Below are positions 23,942 to 32,428 of a stretch of 64,000 bases of DNA, in pieces. This stretch comes from Candidatus Schekmanbacteria bacterium (GTDB lineage: Bacteria; CSSED10-310; JACPHN01), in contig JACPHN010000032.1 in NCBI GenBank assembly GCA_016188575.1, positions 98,185-162,184 on the forward strand, in the 5' to 3' direction. The position numbers and the translations under genes are program-made. How positions within the stretch are numbered: the stretch's first letter is position 1; the number at the start of each line of letters is the position of its first letter. Below the pieces are notes generated by a model. The model worked only from the letters and a program-made list of their open reading frames with translations, ran no database searches and was not told the origin of the DNA.

Positions 23942-24370
23942 GTGGTGGGAAAGAAAGGCGGACAGGACTCGGAAACCCCCGTCTACATGATCGGCGTCGC
24001 TGCCAAGATGCTCGATGTTCATCCCCAGACGCTGCGACTCTACGAGAGACAAGGGCTCGTTCAGCCTTCTCGGTCGGTAGGCAATACCAGGCTCTACTCG
24101 CGCGACGATATCGACCAGGCCAGGCTCGTCCTGCGCCTTACCCGTGACCTGGGTGTCAACCTCGCTGGCGCCGAAATCATTCTGAACTTGCGAAACCAGC
24201 TTTGCCGTACCCAGCGCACGCTCGAGGAAGTGGTGGACATCATCATGCAAGAGGCGCCAGAGGCGGTCGAGAAGATCCAGGCTCACTACCAAAAACACGT
24301 GTCCGAGACGGGTACCAGCGAAATCCTGAGCGTTCGCTTCGAACGGTCCGAACCAGAGGAAGATGAGTGA
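23942..24370 (+). CDS. hspR: MerR-family regulator, HspR-like
   Basis: A 142-residue regulator. An N-terminal winged helix-turn-helix is plain (YMIGVAAKMLDVHPQTLRLY, then NTRLYSRDDI). It is followed by the short HspR-type segment DLGVNLAGAEIILNLR and a helical tail. HspR usually represses dnaK/clpB-type genes, but here no chaperone gene is adjacent. It is the first gene of a salvage and microcompartment operon and overlaps mtnP by 8 bases, so it may control that operon instead. The start is the GTG with AAGGAG about 8 bases upstream. Confidence 0.85.
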   Translation: MVGKKGGQDSETPVYMIGVAAKMLDVHPQTLRLYERQGLVQPSRSVGNTRLYSRDDIDQARLVLRLTRDLGVNLAGAEIILNLRNQLCRTQRTLEEVVDIIMQEAPEAVEKIQAHYQKHVSETGTSEILSVRFERSEPEEDE

Positions 24371-25244
24371 CATGGCCAAGCGGAAGGCGCAGATTGGCGT
24401 CATTGGCGGGAGTGGACTATACGAGATGCCCGAACTGGTCAAGACTGGCAGGGTCGCCGTCAAGACGCCGTTCGGGCCCCCTTCCGACGACTATGAGCTC
24501 GGTGTCATCGAGGGCGTCAAGGTCGCGTTCCTCGCCCGCCATGGCGCCGGACATCGACTGCTCCCCTCGGAAATTAACTACCGGGCTAATGTCTACGGCT
24601 TCAAAAAGCTCGGCGTCGAACGCATCGTGTCGGTGAGCGCCGTCGGCAGCCTGCGCGAGCATATCCATCCTCTCGACATGGTCTTCGTCGACCAGTTCTA
24701 CGACCGCACCCGCGGGCGGGCCTCCACCTTTTTCGGTCAGGGGCTCGCGGCACACGTCAGCTTCGCGCACCCCACCTGCGCCGATCTCTCCGCCAGGCTT
24801 CTTGCAGGCGCACGTCAGCTCGGCCTCTCCCATCACGCCGGCGGCACCTACGTTTGCATGGAAGGCCCCGCGTTCTCGACCCGCGCCGAGTCCGAAGCCT
24901 ACCGGTCCCGCGGCGCGAGCGTCATCGGCATGACCAATCTCCCCGAGGCCAAGCTCGCTCGGGAGGCCGAAATCTGCTACGCGACCGTTGCCCTCGTCAC
25001 CGATTACGACTGCTGGCACGAGGAAGAAGAGGCGGTCAACGTCGAGGCGGTGCTCGAAAATCTGCGCCGAAACGCCGAAAACGCCTGCAAGCTGATCGCC
25101 ACCGTCGTGCCGACGCTGCCATCCGCACCTGGCGCGTGTGAATGCCCATCGGCACTCAGCCGAGCCATCATCACGCCGCCCGACCACGTGGCCGCGCCAG
25201 TAAGGAAGCGGCTGAAGGCCATTATCGGCAAGTACCTCCCGTAG
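24363..25244 (+). CDS. mtnP: S-methyl-5'-thioadenosine phosphorylase
   Basis: A 293-residue nucleoside phosphorylase of the MTAP family. It splits methylthioadenosine, the by-product of polyamine and other SAM-dependent syntheses, into adenine and 5-methylthioribose-1-phosphate. Family features are IGVIGGSGLYE (phosphate site) at the start, FLARHGAGHRLLPSEINYRAN, the base-binding VCMEGPAFSTRAESE, and MTNLPEAKLAREAEICYATV followed by VTDYDCW. The ATG at 24363 lies inside hspR; ATG 24372 directly after the hspR stop is equally possible. The neighbours, a PfkB kinase and a class II aldolase, suggest onward use of the sugar phosphate. Confidence 0.95.
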   Translation: MSDMAKRKAQIGVIGGSGLYEMPELVKTGRVAVKTPFGPPSDDYELGVIEGVKVAFLARHGAGHRLLPSEINYRANVYGFKKLGVERIVSVSAVGSLREHIHPLDMVFVDQFYDRTRGRASTFFGQGLAAHVSFAHPTCADLSARLLAGARQLGLSHHAGGTYVCMEGPAFSTRAESEAYRSRGASVIGMTNLPEAKLAREAEICYATVALVTDYDCWHEEEEAVNVEAVLENLRRNAENACKLIATVVPTLPSAPGACECPSALSRAIITPPDHVAAPVRKRLKAIIGKYLP

Positions 25245-25274
25245 CGATCACGGCGCCTTTGAAGGAGTCCCCAC

Positions 25275-26216
25275 ATGAGTTTGCTTGCGGTCGGGTCTGT
25301 CGCCTATGATTCGGTGGCGACTCCATTTGGCAGAGCCGATGATGTCCTCGGCGGTAGCGCCACCTACTTCTCGCTGAGTGCGAGCTACCTGACAACCGTG
25401 CACGTCGTCGCCGTCGTCGGGGACGACTTCAAGAGCGAGCACCGCTTCCTGCTCGAAGATCGCGGCATCGACCTGTCCGGTCTGCAGAGACAAGAGGGCA
25501 AGACCTTTCGGTGGGCGGGTCAATACGAATATGACATGAATCAGGCGCACACGCTGGAGACCAATCTCAACGTTTTCGCCACGTTCCGCCCGCAGATTCC
25601 CGAAGCGTTGCGCACCGCGGAATACGTCTTCCTCGGCAACATCGACCCCGATCTCCAACGCCACGTGCTCGATCAGATGGTCGCGCCCCGCCTCGTGGCG
25701 CTGGACACGATGAACTTCTGGATTGCCGGCAAGAAGGAAAGTCTCCTGGAGACGCTGGCTCGCGTGGACCTCCTCTTGATCAACGAGGCCGAGGCGCGGC
25801 AACTGGCAAACGTGCCGAATCTGGTCAAGGCCGCCCGCCTGATTCAAGAAATGGGCCCGCAGCGCGTCATCGTCAAGCGCGGGGAGTGCGGGGCGCTCGC
25901 CTTCATCGACGAGCACATCTTTGGCGCCCCCGCCTACCCGCTCGAAGTCGTCCGCGACCCTACTGGCGCGGGAGACACCTTCGCCGGCGGCGTGATGGGG
26001 TATATCGCCGCGAGCGGCTCCTTTGACGTCGACCACTTGCGGCGCGCCGTTGTCATGGGCAGCATCATGGCATCTTTCACGGTCGAGGACTTCAGTCTCC
26101 GCCGCTTGCTCGAAATTTCGCACCAGGACGTCCGCAGGCGCTACGACACCTTGCAGATCATGAGCGCCTTTGCAGAGCTGCCCCCGAATTTGATGGCGCG
26201 CTGGAATCACCAATGA
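25275..26216 (+). CDS. PfkB-family carbohydrate/nucleoside kinase
   Basis: A 313-residue ribokinase-fold kinase. The N-terminal signature is LLAVGSVAYDSVATPFG with a GGSATYFSL segment. The C-terminal ATP and catalytic-base motif is DPTGAGDTFAGG, where the Asp of GAGD abstracts the proton. Such kinases phosphorylate sugars, nucleosides or related alcohols. The substrate is not fixed, but the position between mtnP and a class II aldolase hints at a pentose or methylthio-pentose intermediate, or at adenosine-type salvage. GAAGGAG precedes the ATG, and the stop overlaps the aldolase start (ATGA). Confidence 0.88.
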   Translation: MSLLAVGSVAYDSVATPFGRADDVLGGSATYFSLSASYLTTVHVVAVVGDDFKSEHRFLLEDRGIDLSGLQRQEGKTFRWAGQYEYDMNQAHTLETNLNVFATFRPQIPEALRTAEYVFLGNIDPDLQRHVLDQMVAPRLVALDTMNFWIAGKKESLLETLARVDLLLINEAEARQLANVPNLVKAARLIQEMGPQRVIVKRGECGALAFIDEHIFGAPAYPLEVVRDPTGAGDTFAGGVMGYIAASGSFDVDHLRRAVVMGSIMASFTVEDFSLRRLLEISHQDVRRRYDTLQIMSAFAELPPNLMARWNHQ

Positions 26217-27019
26217 CCCTGATGGGTGGCACGTCCGAAATCGCCCTCCGCCGCGCCATCGTTGATGCGGGCAGGAAGCTCTATCAGCGCGGACTGATTG
26301 CGGCCAGTGACGGGAATATCTCGGCGCTCCTGGAGGGGCCTGATCGACACGGCGGCGCAGGAAGAGTGCTCGTCACCCCAAGCGCGGTCTGGAAGGGCGA
26401 GATGACCCCGGATATGCTGCTCGTGGTGGATTTCACGGGAAAGCGCCTGAAGGGCGACCGCGCCGCCACCAGCGAGCTCCCCATGCACCTCGCCGTGTAC
26501 CGGTGTCGCCCCGACGTTCGCGCTGTCGTGCACGCTCACCCCCCGCTCGCCACCGCCTACGCCGTCGCTCACACCCACCTCGGCGAGCCGCTGCTGTCCG
26601 AGGTTGTGCTCCGCCTGGGGGCGATCGAGCGCGTCGCCTACAACGCCCCGTCCACCGAGCAGCTCGCCACGTCGGTCGCCGCCTCCGTGGCGGACCACGA
26701 CGTCCTGCTGCTCGCAAACCACGGCGCACTGACCGTCGGCCACGACCTACCTGATGCCCTGGGACGAATGGAGACGCTCGAACACTTCGCCACGATCAGC
26801 CTCGCCGTCCGCCAGCTCGGTGGCGGCATCCGGCTTTCCGACAGTCAGGTGGCGGAGCTCCGCGCGCTCGCCTCCGCGGGTCGCTTTGCCGCGGACCAGC
26901 CGCAACCCTGGTCGCCGCCGGGCCAGCCGTGCACGACGTGCGATGTGTGGAGGCAGGCAGTCACCGCCAAGGTCGCCTCTGAAGTGGTCAAGCAGCTCGC
27001 CAAGGCGAACATTCCGTAG
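26213..27019 (+). CDS. Class II aldolase/adducin-family protein
   Basis: A 268-residue zinc-dependent aldolase-fold enzyme. The metal ligands are visible as HAHPP (residues ~104-108) and a later His in LEHFA. The catalytic Glu lies in TSELPMHLAVY near residue 85, and SDGNIS near residue 32 is the family's phosphate-loop motif. Fold members include fuculose-1-phosphate aldolase, the methylthioribulose-1-phosphate dehydratase MtnB and the DHAP-shunt aldolase. Proximity to mtnP and to microcompartment vertex genes fits cleavage of a 5-deoxy or methylthio ketose-phosphate to DHAP plus an aldehyde. A C-terminal CTTCDVW segment is an unusual addition. Confidence 0.85.
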   Translation: MTLMGGTSEIALRRAIVDAGRKLYQRGLIAASDGNISALLEGPDRHGGAGRVLVTPSAVWKGEMTPDMLLVVDFTGKRLKGDRAATSELPMHLAVYRCRPDVRAVVHAHPPLATAYAVAHTHLGEPLLSEVVLRLGAIERVAYNAPSTEQLATSVAASVADHDVLLLANHGALTVGHDLPDALGRMETLEHFATISLAVRQLGGGIRLSDSQVAELRALASAGRFAADQPQPWSPPGQPCTTCDVWRQAVTAKVASEVVKQLAKANIP

Positions 27020-27028
27020 GAGACCCTC

Positions 27029-27337
27029 ATGCTCATCGGCAAGGTGATCGGCCGCATCGTCGCCACCCGCAAGGACGCGCAGCTCACCGGAGCCAAGCTT
27101 CTGATCGTGCGGCCCGTCGATCTCGATGGCGCAGAGAAGCAGGGGTACGTCGTCTGCATCGATACCGTGGGCGCCGGCGCCGGGGAGACGGTTCTGGTCG
27201 TGAGCGGCAGCTCCGCCCGCATGGCCTCCACCTTCCGAAATGCGCCGGTCGATGCGACCATCGTCGCCATCATCGATGAGATCCAGCGCGATGAGGTAGC
27301 CGCGCCCCCCCCTATCCCGCGGGCCAAAACCCAATGA
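27029..27337 (+). CDS. EutN/CcmL microcompartment vertex protein 1
   Basis: A 102-residue BMC pentameric vertex protein. These pentamers cap the corners of bacterial microcompartment shells. The pattern is typical: GKVIGRIVATRKD, then LTGAKLLIVRPVD, a cofactor-like loop VGAGAGETVLVVSGSSAR, then VDATIVAIID. AGGAG lies a few bases before the ATG. The tail after residue 90 is proline-rich and extra. It is the first of three tandem vertex genes directly after the aldolase gene. Confidence 0.93.
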   Translation: MLIGKVIGRIVATRKDAQLTGAKLLIVRPVDLDGAEKQGYVVCIDTVGAGAGETVLVVSGSSARMASTFRNAPVDATIVAIIDEIQRDEVAAPPPIPRAKTQ

Positions 27338-27639
27338 AGGTCGGGCGCGTCATTGGACGAGTCGTGGCGACCGCCAAGGATCCCTCCCTGGTCGGCAAGA
27401 AGCTGCTCTTGCTGCAACCCATGGATGGCGAGCAACGCCCCAGCGGCGACCCTGTGGTGGGGGTCGACGCGGTCGGCGCCGGCGCCGGGGAGCTCGTTTT
27501 CTACGTCGGCGGCAAGGAGGCCACGTTTCCCTTTTTACCGCAAGAAGTAATCACCGACGCGGGTATCGTCGGCATCATCGACAGCCTCGAGCCCGACCGT
27601 GGGGCGGCCAGCGAGCGCGAAAGAGAGGAGCCGCGGTGA
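27334..27639 (+). CDS. EutN/CcmL microcompartment vertex protein 2
   Basis: A 101-residue paralogue of its neighbours: GRVIGRVVATAKDPSLVGKK, LLLQPMD, VGAGAGELVFYVGGKEA and a GIVGIIDSLE end. The ATG overlaps the previous stop. It has a charged C-terminal tail (after about residue 85) absent from the third copy. The three copies are clearly diverged from one another, so they probably fill distinct vertex roles or mixed positions rather than being a recent duplication. Confidence 0.92.
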   Translation: MKVGRVIGRVVATAKDPSLVGKKLLLLQPMDGEQRPSGDPVVGVDAVGAGAGELVFYVGGKEATFPFLPQEVITDAGIVGIIDSLEPDRGAASEREREEPR

Positions 27640-27911
27640 TTCTCGCGCGCGTCACCGGCAAGGCCGTCGCGACTCGGAAGGAGGCCTGCTTCGAGGGCAA
27701 GAAGCTGCTCCGCATCCAGCCAGTCGATCTTGACGGTTCTGCGGTCGGGTCTTCCTTTCTGGCGTTCGATTCCGTCGACGCCGGGCACGGCGACGTCGTG
27801 CTCGTTGTCCAGGAGGGAGGCTCCGCCAACAGCGTCGCCGGCACCGTCCGGAAACCTCTTGACGCGGTCATCGTGGCAGTGGTCGACACGATCGAGCTCG
27901 ACGCCACGTGA
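27636..27911 (+). CDS. EutN/CcmL microcompartment vertex protein 3
   Basis: A 91-residue third vertex protein, the shortest and closest to the core fold: ARVTGKAVATRKEACFEGKK, IQPVDLDG, then DVVLVVQEGGSA and VDTIELDAT. It starts at a GTG overlapping the previous stop (GTGA). No hexameric (BMC-H) or trimeric (BMC-T) shell gene lies in the window, so these vertices must pair with shell tiles encoded elsewhere. Confidence 0.92.
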   Translation: MILARVTGKAVATRKEACFEGKKLLRIQPVDLDGSAVGSSFLAFDSVDAGHGDVVLVVQEGGSANSVAGTVRKPLDAVIVAVVDTIELDAT

Positions 27912-28600
27912 CGTCCGAGGGCTGGACACGAGCATATACGGAGCGCCCCGACGTGTTCGCGGCTTTTGCGCAAGCAGAGGACCCCGACGAGCAGATCACC
28001 GAAGCGCTGCTCGGCCACGGCGCCGTCACCGGCTGCGTAGCTCTCGACGTCGGTTGCGGGACGGGGCGATTCGGCTCTCGGCTCGCGCCGCACGCCAAGT
28101 CATACGTTGCGGTGGACGCGAGCCCGCAAATGGCCCGGATTGCCGCTGAAAACCTCGGATGCCGGCGAACCGTCGCCATCGCGCGCGGCGAACGTCTCCC
28201 ATTTGCCGATGCGACGTTTGACCGCATCTTGGCCTCCTTCTTGCTCGCAAACCTGCCCCGGTCACTCCGGAACCAGGTGCTCGCCGAGCTCCTCAGGGTA
28301 GCGCGGAGCTCCCCAGAGGCAGCTATCTGGGCGGTCGAAAACCACTGGCACGGCGCGTTTCAGAAGCTGCGCGGCCGCGCGGGCGGTGTCGAGAACGCCG
28401 AAGTGCTGCCATTGCTTCGCGATCATGGATTCCGCGTTGTCGAGACGATCCGCACCCGCCTGCGCTTTCCCTCGCCCGAACACGCGCGCGTGGTGCTCGG
28501 CATGCTGTGCGGAGAGGCCGCGGCATGTGCCCTCACGGAGGAGCCATGCGCGGATATCGATCATCAGGTTGTCTTGCTGGAAAGGGCCGCGGCGCGCTGA
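27908..28600 (+). CDS. Class I SAM-dependent methyltransferase
   Basis: A 230-residue enzyme with the SAM-binding motif ALDVGCGTGRFG near residues 43-54, an acidic strand VAVDASPQM and the segment LPFADATFDRILASFLL of the UbiE/COQ5-like (Methyltransf_11) group. The substrate is unknown. The GTG start overlaps the stop of the third vertex gene (GTGA), so it is in the same operon. It could act on a small product of the salvage pathway, but nothing in the sequence shows that. Confidence 0.85.
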   Translation: MTSEGWTRAYTERPDVFAAFAQAEDPDEQITEALLGHGAVTGCVALDVGCGTGRFGSRLAPHAKSYVAVDASPQMARIAAENLGCRRTVAIARGERLPFADATFDRILASFLLANLPRSLRNQVLAELLRVARSSPEAAIWAVENHWHGAFQKLRGRAGGVENAEVLPLLRDHGFRVVETIRTRLRFPSPEHARVVLGMLCGEAAACALTEEPCADIDHQVVLLERAAAR

Positions 28601-29411: not shown

Positions 29412-30329
29412 ATGTCCACGATGGCATTGTCGCCGTCCACTGGCCCCGACGCCGGTGATATCGAGGACGAATACCGCCTTCATCGCCGCTTCGATCGCAT
29501 CGGACGCCTGCTCGGCGACGCCGGCATGCGGCGTCTTCTCGATTCCTCGGTTGCCATCGTCGGGCTCGGCGGCGTCGGGTCCTTCGCCGCGGAGTCCCTC
29601 GCCCGCAGTGGAATCGGCCATCTCCGCCTCATCGACTTCGACCGCGTGTGCGTCACGAACACCAACCGGCAACTACAGGCACTGAAAGGAAAGATCGGCT
29701 GCTCCAAGGCCGAGGTCCTCGCCGAGCGCCTGCTGCTCGTCAATCCCCAGGCCAGGGTTGAGGCAGTTCCGCAGTTCTACAGCGCCGCGAATGCCGCTCG
29801 ACTTCTCCGCGATGACATTGGCTTCGTGGTCGACGCCATCGACAACGTGACCGCCAAGTGCCACCTCATTGCGCATTGCCGCCGTAACGGGATCCGCCTC
29901 GTCTGCTCCACGGGAGCGGCCGGTCGCATGGACCCGACCTTGATCCGCGTCGCCGACCTGGCCCAGACCCGAGTCGATCCACTTGCGCAAGCGGTGCGAC
30001 GCGTTCTGCGACAGGAGCACGGGTTTCCGGGGAACGGGGACTTTGGCATTCCCGCGGTCTTCTCCACGGAGTCACCCCAGCAGCCGCTACCACTCACCTA
30101 TGATCAGGGCAGGGGTTTCCGGTGCGTCTGCCCTGGCGGCAAGAACGACTTCCATTCCTGCGAGGGGCGCCGCGTCATCTACGGCACAGCTAGCTTCGTT
30201 ACGGGCTCGTTTGGCCTCACCTGCGCCAGCGTGGTCGTCCGTGCGATCGCGGGAAGCGCGCCAGGCAGTGCGCATGCCGAATGCGACACGCCGGATTCAG
30301 CGGTCGTAGGCAATACTGCCGATCTGTAA
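29412..30329 (+). CDS. tcdA: tRNA threonylcarbamoyladenosine dehydratase
   Basis: A 305-residue E1-like (ThiF/MoeB-fold) enzyme that cyclises t6A37 of tRNA to ct6A using ATP. Marks are the start segment RLHRRFDRIGRLLG, the nucleotide loop VAIVGLGGVGSFAAESLARSG, LIDFDRVCVTNTNRQ, and CVCPGGKNDFHSC with YGTASFVTGSFG near the end. The TcdA/CsdL form, rather than ThiF or MoeB, is favoured by the NRQLQAL segment and the absence of zinc-binding CxxC pairs. The tail overlaps the convergent radical SAM gene by 33 bases. Confidence 0.9.
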   Translation: MSTMALSPSTGPDAGDIEDEYRLHRRFDRIGRLLGDAGMRRLLDSSVAIVGLGGVGSFAAESLARSGIGHLRLIDFDRVCVTNTNRQLQALKGKIGCSKAEVLAERLLLVNPQARVEAVPQFYSAANAARLLRDDIGFVVDAIDNVTAKCHLIAHCRRNGIRLVCSTGAAGRMDPTLIRVADLAQTRVDPLAQAVRRVLRQEHGFPGNGDFGIPAVFSTESPQQPLPLTYDQGRGFRCVCPGGKNDFHSCEGRRVIYGTASFVTGSFGLTCASVVVRAIAGSAPGSAHAECDTPDSAVVGNTADL

Positions 30330-31115
30330 CGTCCCGCGCTGCAACCAGAAATACTCGACGCTGCTAGGGCGTCGCATATTCATGCGCCCGTAGATCGCCA
30401 CCCGCGGCGCGCTGGCGCGCGCCAGCCGGCAGGCGTTACTGAATTCTTCGCTCGTGATCGCGTGCGCGCCCGCGTTGCGGCTGCCGGCCCTGCCGACAGC
30501 GATGAAGCGATAGAGGTGCCACGCGTGCAAGCGCGCTCCCGACTGGGCAAGGCACAGCAAGAAGCGGCCAATTGCCTCGACCTCCTGGATGTTGCTGCGG
30601 GTGACGACCGTCGAGATCGTGAACGGCTTTTCGGCCTCGGTAAGCTGTCTCAAGCGCGTCAGGATTGCAGCATGGTGCCGCCCGCCGCCGCGCGGCCAGA
30701 TCCGCAGGCGGTCATGGAGCTCGGGATTCATCGCCTCCAGCGGTAAGACAAAGCGGTCTACGGCGCGGCTTTCCGCAAAATCGCTCGGTAGGGTCCCGCC
30801 GTTGGTGCAGACCTGGACGAAATGGCCAAGATCCTGGGCGAACTCACAGAGCTCGTGCAGATTATGGGGCCACAGGTACGGCTCACCGCCGCCGAATACC
30901 ACATTGCGAATGTTCCGCTGGCGGAGCTCCCTGAGCAGCAACCTTGCTTGCGCCGCTGCCATGGTATCGAGGTCGGTGTCGGCGGCGCAGAAGGGACAGA
31001 CCATGTCGCACGAGGGGACCAGAAAAATGGATGCGATTTGTTTGTGAGATGGCACCTCTTCCATCTGCCGCCACGCCGCTGGAAGCGGCTCGGACCACGG
31101 GTCGAGAAGCTGCAT
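30297..31115 (-). CDS. Radical SAM protein next to an ABC transporter
   Basis: A 272-residue radical SAM enzyme. The [4Fe-4S] motif CDMVCPFC is near residue 34, followed by the SAM-binding NVVFGGGEPYLWP. No auxiliary-cluster (SPASM) cysteines are apparent, and the end is short. The ATG overlaps the stop of the ABC permease (TAATG), which couples it to the NatAB-like pair. It could process or modify a transported peptide or metabolite, but no precursor peptide gene was found. The frame upstream of this ATG is a shadow of the permease. Confidence 0.83.
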   Translation of the reverse strand: MQLLDPWSEPLPAAWRQMEEVPSHKQIASIFLVPSCDMVCPFCAADTDLDTMAAAQARLLLRELRQRNIRNVVFGGGEPYLWPHNLHELCEFAQDLGHFVQVCTNGGTLPSDFAESRAVDRFVLPLEAMNPELHDRLRIWPRGGGRHHAAILTRLRQLTEAEKPFTISTVVTRSNIQEVEAIGRFLLCLAQSGARLHAWHLYRFIAVGRAGSRNAGAHAITSEEFSNACRLARASAPRVAIYGRMNMRRPSSVEYFWLQRGTLQIGSIAYDR

Positions 31116-32428
31116 TACGACTGTCCGCCGGCGACATCGGCAGGCGGGAGGCGCCGCACCGACCGCCACAGCGCCGCTCGTAGGGACGCACCGCCACCAA
31201 TGGATTCGCTCGTGAATGCGCGCATCGCCAGCCCTAACAGGAGCAGCGCGTACGCCGTGTTGGTGCCAATCACTCCGAGCACGCCAAGCACGGTCCCCTT
31301 TCCCACGAGGACATCCTTGAACAGGAGGCACAGATTGAGCACCGGAACGGGTATGAGCACGGGCGATAGCCGCGTGCCGGGTAGCATCATGGCAATCATC
31401 GGCAGCAACATCAGCAACATGATGGGCGACAGATAGGTCTGCGCCTCCTTGAAGGTCTTGGCAAAGAAGGAAATGAACAGCATGAGCGCGGAAAAGAGTG
31501 CCGAATACGGGATGATCATGAGCGGGATCAGCGCAAGCACACTCGCGTCGATGCGCAGCCCCAAGCCGCCGAGCGCATCGGCGCCCTGCTTCCCGAGCGC
31601 CAGCCCATACCGAAAGGTCGCCGCCAAGCTCAGCAGATTCAGCACCGCCGTGGCTGTGGAAAACGTAAACACGGCCAGGAACTTCCCCACGCAAATTTCC
31701 CACCGCTCAAGAGGTGATACGACCAGGGTTTCCAGCGTGCCCCGCTCACGCTCGCCCGCCCCGAGGTCAATCGCGGGGTAGTATGCACCCAGCATGGTGA
31801 CGAACAGCAGCAGGTAGGCAAACAGGCTGCCGAGCAGGTATCCTCCCATTTTCTCCGGAGTGGCCACGTTCTCCGTGCGCACCAGGAGAGGGGCGGCGGC
31901 AGCAGCGTCATGCCCCAAAGCCGTGAGGCGGCTCGTGAGCGCCTCCTTGCCCACGTCCCGTAGCAGCTCCGCGAGAAGCTTGCCGGCCTCGTTGGATCGC
32001 GACTCGGCCTCGTCGACAAACACGACGACTTCGGTCTGTTCGAGGCGGGCTAGCCGGTCAGCGAGATCGCGAGGAAATATCACCAACGCGTCCAACTTCC
32101 CGTCCACCACCTCGCCGCGCGCCTCGGCTTCCATCTCTGGGGCGGCTCGAGCCGCGACCTGTGGCAGCCCATCGAGGCGGCGAATCAGCGAAGCATCGAT
32201 TGCTGCGGCGGTCGCCGGTGGAGTAGGGTCGCGGACTGCATATCCGATGTTCAAGGTACGCTGGCGAGCGGATCGCGCGTGCATGCGGTGCATCTGAATC
32301 ACGGTCACGATCAGCAAGGGGTAGAGGAGGACCGGGAGAAACAGCATGGTGAAAATCGTGCGCCTGTCCCGGAGGGCATCTCGCATCTCTTTCAGGAAGA
32401 GGATCAGAATGCGCTCGCGCGAGGTCAC
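31115..32428 (-). CDS. ABC transporter permease (NatB/ABC-2 type)
   Basis: A 437-residue membrane protein. A helix follows residue 25. A large extracytoplasmic domain (about residues 45-190) comes next, and five to six helices fill the C-terminal half. The segment AIDLGAGERERGTLETLVVSPLER is the classic ABC-2 permease signature. NatB-type exporters move Na+ or antibiotics. It forms a unit with the ATPase gene upstream (4-base overlap) and a radical SAM gene downstream. Confidence 0.87.
   Translation of the reverse strand: MTSRERILILFLKEMRDALRDRRTIFTMLFLPVLLYPLLIVTVIQMHRMHARSARQRTLNIGYAVRDPTPPATAAAIDASLIRRLDGLPQVAARAAPEMEAEARGEVVDGKLDALVIFPRDLADRLARLEQTEVVVFVDEAESRSNEAGKLLAELLRDVGKEALTSRLTALGHDAAAAAPLLVRTENVATPEKMGGYLLGSLFAYLLLFVTMLGAYYPAIDLGAGERERGTLETLVVSPLERWEICVGKFLAVFTFSTATAVLNLLSLAATFRYGLALGKQGADALGGLGLRIDASVLALIPLMIIPYSALFSALMLFISFFAKTFKEAQTYLSPIMLLMLLPMIAMMLPGTRLSPVLIPVPVLNLCLLFKDVLVGKGTVLGVLGVIGTNTAYALLLLGLAMRAFTSESIGGGASLRAALWRSVRRLPPADVAGGQS

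What the first reader, a model, noticed from the sequence alone, without database searches (positions are those of the whole stretch)
24363..27911. Three microcompartment vertex proteins in a methylthioadenosine-phosphorylase operon
Seen: mtnP, a PfkB kinase, a class II aldolase and three tandem EutN/CcmL genes are linked by ATGA/GTGA overlaps, headed by an HspR-like regulator. No BMC-H or BMC-T shell gene is in the window. Known: class II aldolase microcompartments in some Planctomycetes, Verrucomicrobia and myxobacteria carry several vertex genes, with shell genes sometimes at other loci. Inference: a compartment that processes methylthio- or deoxy-ribose phosphates and confines a toxic aldehyde, with the aldolase as signature enzyme. 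The link of mtnP to BMC genes is unusual to me.
Basis: partly seen in the sequence, partly recalled or inferred. Interest (0 to 1): 0.75.

Follow-up and report, generated by a model that had tools for sequence, protein, structure and literature searches.

The report
Acetaldehyde organelle linked to nucleoside salvage
The operon joins a common nucleoside-salvage gene pair to the aldolase cargo and vertex caps of a scattered bacterial organelle that probably processes acetaldehyde; the linkage is rare and hints that such aldolases salvage 5-deoxy sugars, but the substrate is untested.

Summary
In detail: an HspR-like regulator, mtnP, a PfkB kinase, a class II aldolase, three EutN/CcmL vertex genes and a methyltransferase run in one tight array. 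Shell tiles lie at four other places in the genome (two BMC-H, a PduT-like BMC-T, EutL plus EutS); these are its only vertex genes. The aldolase ends in a linker plus a terminal helix resembling encapsulation peptides on DeoC, EutC and an acetylating acetaldehyde dehydrogenase elsewhere, so it is probably cargo of one dispersed acetaldehyde metabolosome. The mtnP link is not a conserved BMC feature: mtnP-PfkB occurs without BMC genes in relatives, aldolase-EutN occurs without mtnP in about 30 Acidobacteriota and one relative, and none of 70 mtnP-bearing Myxococcota genomes places mtnP near a listed EutN gene. Best model: the aldolase ends a DHAP-shunt-like route (MtnP, MtnA, aldolase), releasing acetaldehyde or methylthioacetaldehyde into the shell. 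For it: this is the genome's only class II aldolase (so no MtnB), two MtnA genes exist, and DeoC and EutBC feed the same aldehyde. Substrate is inferred. Closest known: ACI/HO/FRAG microcompartments and the DHAP shunt; I found no paper joining the two.

The parts
23942..24370 (+). HspR-like MerR-family regulator; overlaps mtnP by 8 nt
   Evidence: NF047375 HspR 105.2 bits vs cut-off 105; Pfam MerR_1. An HspR-sigma70-mtnP-PfkB array without BMC genes occurs in relative G014
24363..25244 (+). mtnP, methylthioadenosine phosphorylase family; no encapsulation-peptide-like tail found
   Evidence: TIGR01694 315 bits, cut-off 275
25275..26216 (+). PfkB-family kinase, conserved neighbour of mtnP
   Evidence: PF00294; PDB 3kd6 345 bits; adjacent to mtnP in L099, L100, L111, L112
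26213..27019 (+). class II aldolase, the only PF00596 gene of the genome; active-site residues E88, H107, H109, H170 kept; probable BMC cargo
   Evidence: PF00596 156 bits; single copy; conserved columns; fold like YgbL, DrdA and FucA
26933..27016 (+). C-terminal encapsulation-peptide-like helix of the aldolase (residues 241-265 in the model, to the end of the protein) after a linker
   Evidence: AlphaFold model: core mostly about 95, linker 50-62, terminal helix 241-265 at 57-78 pLDDT; resembles DeoC and AldDH EPs (7 and 21 of 2000 shuffles as good)
27029..27337 (+). EutN/CcmL vertex protein 1 (BMC-P)
   Evidence: PF03319 107 bits; best PDB match 5v74/6mzx
27334..27639 (+). EutN/CcmL vertex protein 2 (BMC-P)
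   Evidence: PF03319 94 bits; best PDB match 5v74
27636..27911 (+). EutN/CcmL vertex protein 3 (BMC-P)
   Evidence: PF03319 84 bits
27908..28600 (+). class I SAM-dependent methyltransferase, GTGA overlap with EutN3; role in the system unknown
   Evidence: Pfam Methyltransf_25 63.5 bits

Best explanation
The operon supplies the vertex caps (three BMC-P) and one cargo enzyme (class II aldolase with a C-terminal encapsulation peptide) of a single metabolosome whose other parts are scattered over at least five further places in the genome. The cargo modules found all release, or oxidise, acetaldehyde: DeoC next to a BMC-H gene and a pyrimidine-nucleoside phosphorylase, EutABC next to EutL and EutS shell genes, and an acetylating acetaldehyde dehydrogenase. 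The aldolase most likely cleaves 5-deoxyribulose-1-phosphate and/or 5-methylthioribulose-1-phosphate made by MtnP and MtnA, as in the DHAP shunt, giving DHAP plus acetaldehyde or methylthioacetaldehyde inside the shell. Shown by sequence: gene identities, dispersed shell genes, EP-like tails, two MtnA genes, one class II aldolase. Inferred: one shared shell, encapsulation, the substrate, and a functional rather than accidental link to mtnP. The dispersed acetaldehyde metabolosome with encapsulated aldolase alone I would put at about 0.8; the confidence below is for the whole statement.
For: Shell genes on four other contigs with annotated neighbours: BMC-H + DeoC + DeoA, PduS-like + PduT-like BMC-T, EutABC + EutL + EutS, lone BMC-H. 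Acetylating acetaldehyde dehydrogenase, TIGR02518 624 vs cut-off 620 and PDB 5j78 504 bits, with C-terminal EP. EP-like termini on aldolase, DeoC and AldDH, seen by eye on EutC; EP-like tails on relatives' aldolases even where they lie away from shell genes (G013, G014). The only class II aldolase of the genome, hence no MtnB, with two MtnA above cut-off. Aldolase aligns with DrdA (76 bits) better than with E. coli FucA (about 50 bits). The DHAP shunt with MtnP + MtnA + class II aldolase is established chemistry (PMC6079011, PMC10986504). PfkB-aldolase ATGA overlap suggests one transcript.
Against: The mtnP-aldolase-EutN linkage was found only in this genome: relatives carry mtnP and EutN on different contigs, no mtnP near a listed EutN in 70 Myxococcota genomes, none in about 30 Acidobacteriota loci. 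The best structural and NCBIfam matches of the aldolase are YgbL-type (OtnC) enzymes, slightly ahead of DrdA. MtnP, PfkB and the MtnAs show no EP match. No PduL in this genome. EP helices are a prediction.
Confidence: 0.45

Rival explanations
1. Accidental operon fusion: the housekeeping HspR-mtnP-PfkB unit has landed upstream of an aldolase + BMC-P unit of a known kind. The aldolase is BMC cargo but acts on another sugar phosphate (fuculose-1-P, rhamnulose-1-P or unknown), unrelated to mtnP.
For: Both halves exist separately: HspR-sigma70-mtnP-PfkB in G014, mtnP-PfkB in G015, L111 and L112, aldolase-EutN x3 in G015 and Acidobacteriota. PVM and GRM5 aldolases of this family act on fuculose/rhamnulose phosphates (PMC8217296).
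Against: The BMC-type AldDH of the genome is an acetaldehyde rather than lactaldehyde type by curated model; the genome has two MtnA and no other class II aldolase to finish the route.
Confidence: 0.35
2. Nucleoside/ribose route: MtnP with the PfkB kinase and an isomerase makes ribulose-1-phosphate or a related sugar, and the aldolase yields DHAP and glycolaldehyde.
For: NCBIfam matches to haloarchaeal ribulose-1-phosphate aldolase (97 bits) and ribose-1-phosphate kinase (41 bits), both below cut-off.
Against: Matches are far below curated cut-offs; both IF-2B proteins score as MtnA rather than ribose-1,5-bisphosphate isomerase.
Confidence: 0.1
3. The class II protein is a YgbL/OtnC-like decarboxylase of a tetronate-type pathway that happens to be encapsulated.
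For: Top hits are NF043034 (127 bits, cut-off 250) and YgbL structures 6vop/6voq.
Against: Below the curated cut-off; no tetronate-pathway partner in the operon; the same gene in ACI loci has been read as an aldolase (PMC8217296).
Confidence: 0.07

Closest known systems
ACI microcompartment (Sutter et al. 2021, PMC8217296)
   Same: Class II aldolase with C-terminal encapsulation peptide followed by a BMC-P triplet; AldDH at a distant locus
   Different: In the Acidobacteriota loci sampled here BMC-H sits between aldolase and EutN; here BMC-H is on other contigs, no hydroxyacid dehydrogenase is in the operon, and mtnP-PfkB is fused upstream; host belongs to a small unnamed phylum (8 genomes held), so not evidently Acidobacteriota
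HO microcompartment (Haliangium ochraceum type)
   Same: BMC-P triplet, aldolase + BMC-P satellite, EP-bearing DeoC elsewhere, EUT-module satellite; EutN1 and EutN2 match 5v74, taken from memory to be the H. ochraceum shell
   Different: AldDH only 29% identical to an HO-like AldDH; BMC-T is PduT-like, no gated BMC-Tdp found; all three BMC-P sit in the satellite
FRAG microcompartments (same paper)
   Same: Shell genes spread over several loci with a BMC-P triplet as common feature
   Different: Here several loci do carry candidate cargo enzymes; shell-protein type not assigned with the published HMM set
DHAP shunt / 5-deoxyribose salvage (PMC6079011, PMC10986504)
   Same: MtnP + MtnA + class II aldolase, the MtnP variant of the pathway
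   Different: Neither paper mentions microcompartments; MtnA is not in this operon; activity untested

Membership tests
BMC-P vertex proteins (EutN/CcmL) | PF03319 domain above curated cut-off | tested here: met
   107, 94 and 84 bits vs 25
ACI BMC type | Class II aldolase with C-terminal EP plus BMC-P triplet | tested here: met
   (EP by sequence and model only)
ACI BMC type | BMC-H and hydroxyacid dehydrogenase in the main locus | tested here: not met
   No PF00936 on the contig; operon genes annotated, none is such a dehydrogenase; rest of the genome not searched for it
ACI BMC type | AldDH on a satellite locus, related to the ACI AldDH | tested here: inconclusive
   AldDH is at a separate place, G000:C12; its relation to ACI AldDHs was not tested
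HO BMC type | BMC-P triplet | tested here: met
HO BMC type | Gated BMC-Tdp and HO-type AldDH | tested here: not met
   Only BMC-T found are PduT-like and EutL; AldDH 29% to an HO-like query
FRAG BMC types | Shell genes at several remote loci with a BMC-P triplet | tested here: met
   Five contigs carry shell genes
FRAG BMC types | Shell-protein composition by the published HMM set | not testable with these tools
   HMM set not available
DHAP shunt | MtnP (or Pfs + MtnK), MtnA and class II aldolase present | tested here: met
DHAP shunt | Aldolase cleaves 5-deoxyribulose-1-P or 5-methylthioribulose-1-P | not testable with these tools
   Needs enzymology; sequence is ambiguous between YgbL, DrdA and FucA

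The most novel reading that the evidence does not exclude
A bacterial microcompartment that houses the terminal step of 5'-deoxyadenosine/MTA salvage (DHAP shunt), with a shared shell taking acetaldehyde from three cargo modules: DeoC, EutBC and the class II aldolase. This would give a substrate to the class II aldolases of the enigmatic ACI/HO-type loci.
Probability: 0.35. Interest if true: 0.75.

Novelty: new variant of a known kind. Interest (0 to 1): 0.5.

Why it matters
Sutter et al. 2021 list ACI, HO and FRAG microcompartments as lacking an obvious enzyme that makes the aldehyde. An operon that ties an aldolase and vertex proteins of this kind to a methylthioadenosine/5'-deoxyadenosine phosphorylase offers a concrete, cheap-to-test substrate, and would join salvage of radical-SAM and B12 by-products to organelle metabolism.

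Tried and rejected
mtnP as a conserved BMC gene: not supported (the 70-genome contig comparison was read off the two listings by eye, and the EutN listing was truncated, so secondary EutN loci may be missed). The aldehyde dehydrogenase beside BMC-H on C35 as the BMC AldDH: rejected, its nearest structures are 5j6b (715 bits) and ALDH21, it has no EP match, and no AldDH hit was found in the matching relatives' loci L103 and L104. MtnB identity of the aldolase: rejected, TIGR03328 72 bits vs 137. HAIR-type HspR operator (consensus from memory): none in the window within 3 mismatches. MtnA about 1.8 kb from the BMC-P triplet in G014: opposite strand, not used as evidence. Tree of aldolases: the window sequence is a long branch with no firm place. 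No paper in the library joins microcompartments with methylthioadenosine phosphorylase, 5-deoxyribose or the DHAP shunt; the one paper found for 'methylthioadenosine' holds each word once and was judged by its title, not read.

Full report
What is there. The window carries, on the + strand, an HspR-like MerR regulator (23942-24370), mtnP (24363-25244), a PfkB kinase (25275-26216), a class II aldolase (26213-27019), three EutN/CcmL genes (27029-27337, 27334-27639, 27636-27911) and a methyltransferase (27908-28600), all assigned by curated models. Two of the junctions are short gaps, not overlaps (30 nt between mtnP and PfkB, 9 nt between aldolase and EutN1). PfkB and aldolase overlap by ATGA, so the two halves of the array are probably on one transcript.

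Shell and cargo elsewhere in the genome. The genome (9.2 Mb, 275 contigs, 93.8% complete, 3.7% contamination) has seven PF00936 domains on four other contigs and no EutN outside the window. Neighbours: C35, a EutM-like BMC-H with DeoC and a pyrimidine-nucleoside phosphorylase; C195, a PduS-like protein with a PduT-like BMC-T; C37, EutA, EutB, EutC with EutL and EutS; C247, a lone BMC-H. A search with an HO-like AldDH finds one BMC-type enzyme, at C12: TIGR02518 acetylating acetaldehyde dehydrogenase 624 bits against a cut-off of 620, nearest solved structure 5j78. Base composition of these contigs matches the window (tetranucleotide correlation 0.96-0.99, against 0.73-0.76 for contigs of a relative), which argues against a binning artefact.

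Encapsulation peptides. The aldolase ends in a Pro-rich linker and the helix VWRQAVTAKVASEVVKQLAKANIP. AlphaFold gives a confident core, a low-confidence linker and a helix at 241-265. The tail is similar to the N-terminal helix of DeoC (IATITAEVLRRL) and the C-terminal helix of the AldDH (IKAIVSEVLRQF); 7 and 21 of 2000 shuffled tails did as well. A simple regular expression, written after seeing these three sequences, matched only the aldolase among 69 called genes on five loci (the DeoC start was called too far downstream there); it is illustrative, not a test. EutC has a similar N-terminus by eye. Most class II aldolases next to BMC genes in other phyla, and those of relatives G013 and G014 that lie away from shell genes, carry comparable tails; those of L063, L086 and L139 do not.

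Is mtnP part of the system? In the window's phylum (8 genomes held) three relatives with EutN triplets carry mtnP on another contig. mtnP-PfkB is adjacent, with no BMC gene in the fetched stretch, in G014, G015, a Vicinamibacterales and a Myxococcales genome, and G014 has HspR-sigma70-mtnP-PfkB in a row. Aldolase-EutN x3 without mtnP is found in G015 and in about 30 Acidobacteriota loci, where BMC-H lies between aldolase and EutN. In 80 EutN-bearing Myxococcota genomes, 70 have an mtnP match and none lies near a listed EutN gene; two share a contig but are 0.9 and 1.7 Mb apart (compared by eye, EutN list truncated). So this operon is a junction of two separately conserved units.

Substrate. 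This aldolase is the only PF00596 gene of the genome, so MtnB is absent at 94% completeness, while two MtnA enzymes score above cut-off. In the DHAP shunt, MtnP or a nucleosidase plus kinase, MtnA and a class II aldolase turn 5'-deoxyadenosine into DHAP and acetaldehyde and MTA into DHAP and methylthioacetaldehyde (PMC6079011, PMC10986504). The aldolase keeps the residues aligned with the catalytic glutamate and metal histidines of FucA (E88, H107, H109, H170; residue roles from general knowledge). By sequence and fold it lies nearest YgbL, then DrdA of Bacillus thuringiensis, then FucA, which does not settle the substrate. The argument for acetaldehyde is convergence: DeoC, EutBC and the AldDH all concern that aldehyde (reactions from general knowledge).

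Comparison with the literature. Sutter et al. 2021 (PMC8217296) describe ACI loci (class II aldolase with C-terminal EP, hydroxyacid dehydrogenase, BMC-P triplet, AldDH on a satellite), HO loci (BMC-P triplet, aldolase satellite, EP-bearing pfam01791 enzyme elsewhere, EUT-module satellites) and FRAG loci (shell genes at up to six places, BMC-P triplet). The present system shares parts of all three. It fails tested features of ACI and HO; for FRAG the shell composition could not be tested. My full-text searches found no paper joining microcompartments with methylthioadenosine phosphorylase, 5-deoxyribose or the DHAP shunt; the library is incomplete.

Verdict. A dispersed acetaldehyde-type metabolosome with an aldolase + BMC-P satellite is well supported and of a known kind. 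The link to MTA/5'-deoxyadenosine salvage is real as a gene array, rare in this survey, mechanistically sensible and untested.

Noticed in passing
L012:3247-6009 (G000:C247): A lone BMC-H gene lies beside an OrfB_IS605/TnpB-like gene, on a 6.4-kb contig that also carries a HepT-like gene.
   Followed up: no
window 30297-31190: A radical SAM gene (PF04055) lies on the minus strand about 1.7 kb downstream of the methyltransferase; its relation to 5'-deoxyadenosine salvage was not examined.
   Followed up: no
L096:8379-12176 (G014): An MtnA gene lies about 1.8 kb from a BMC-P triplet on the opposite strand, with a thioredoxin-fold gene between.
   Followed up: partly
L095:8417-10489 (G013): A zinc-type alcohol dehydrogenase gene abuts the BMC-P triplet and PduL lies about 5.4 kb from it, so this relative has more of a classical metabolosome core.
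   Followed up: partly
L088 and L089: Short contigs (an unnamed bacterium and an Actinobacteria MAG) carry three or more tandem EutN-like genes at low identity to the query.
   Followed up: no
genome G000: No PduL (PF06130) was found in the window's genome although two relatives have it.
   Followed up: no
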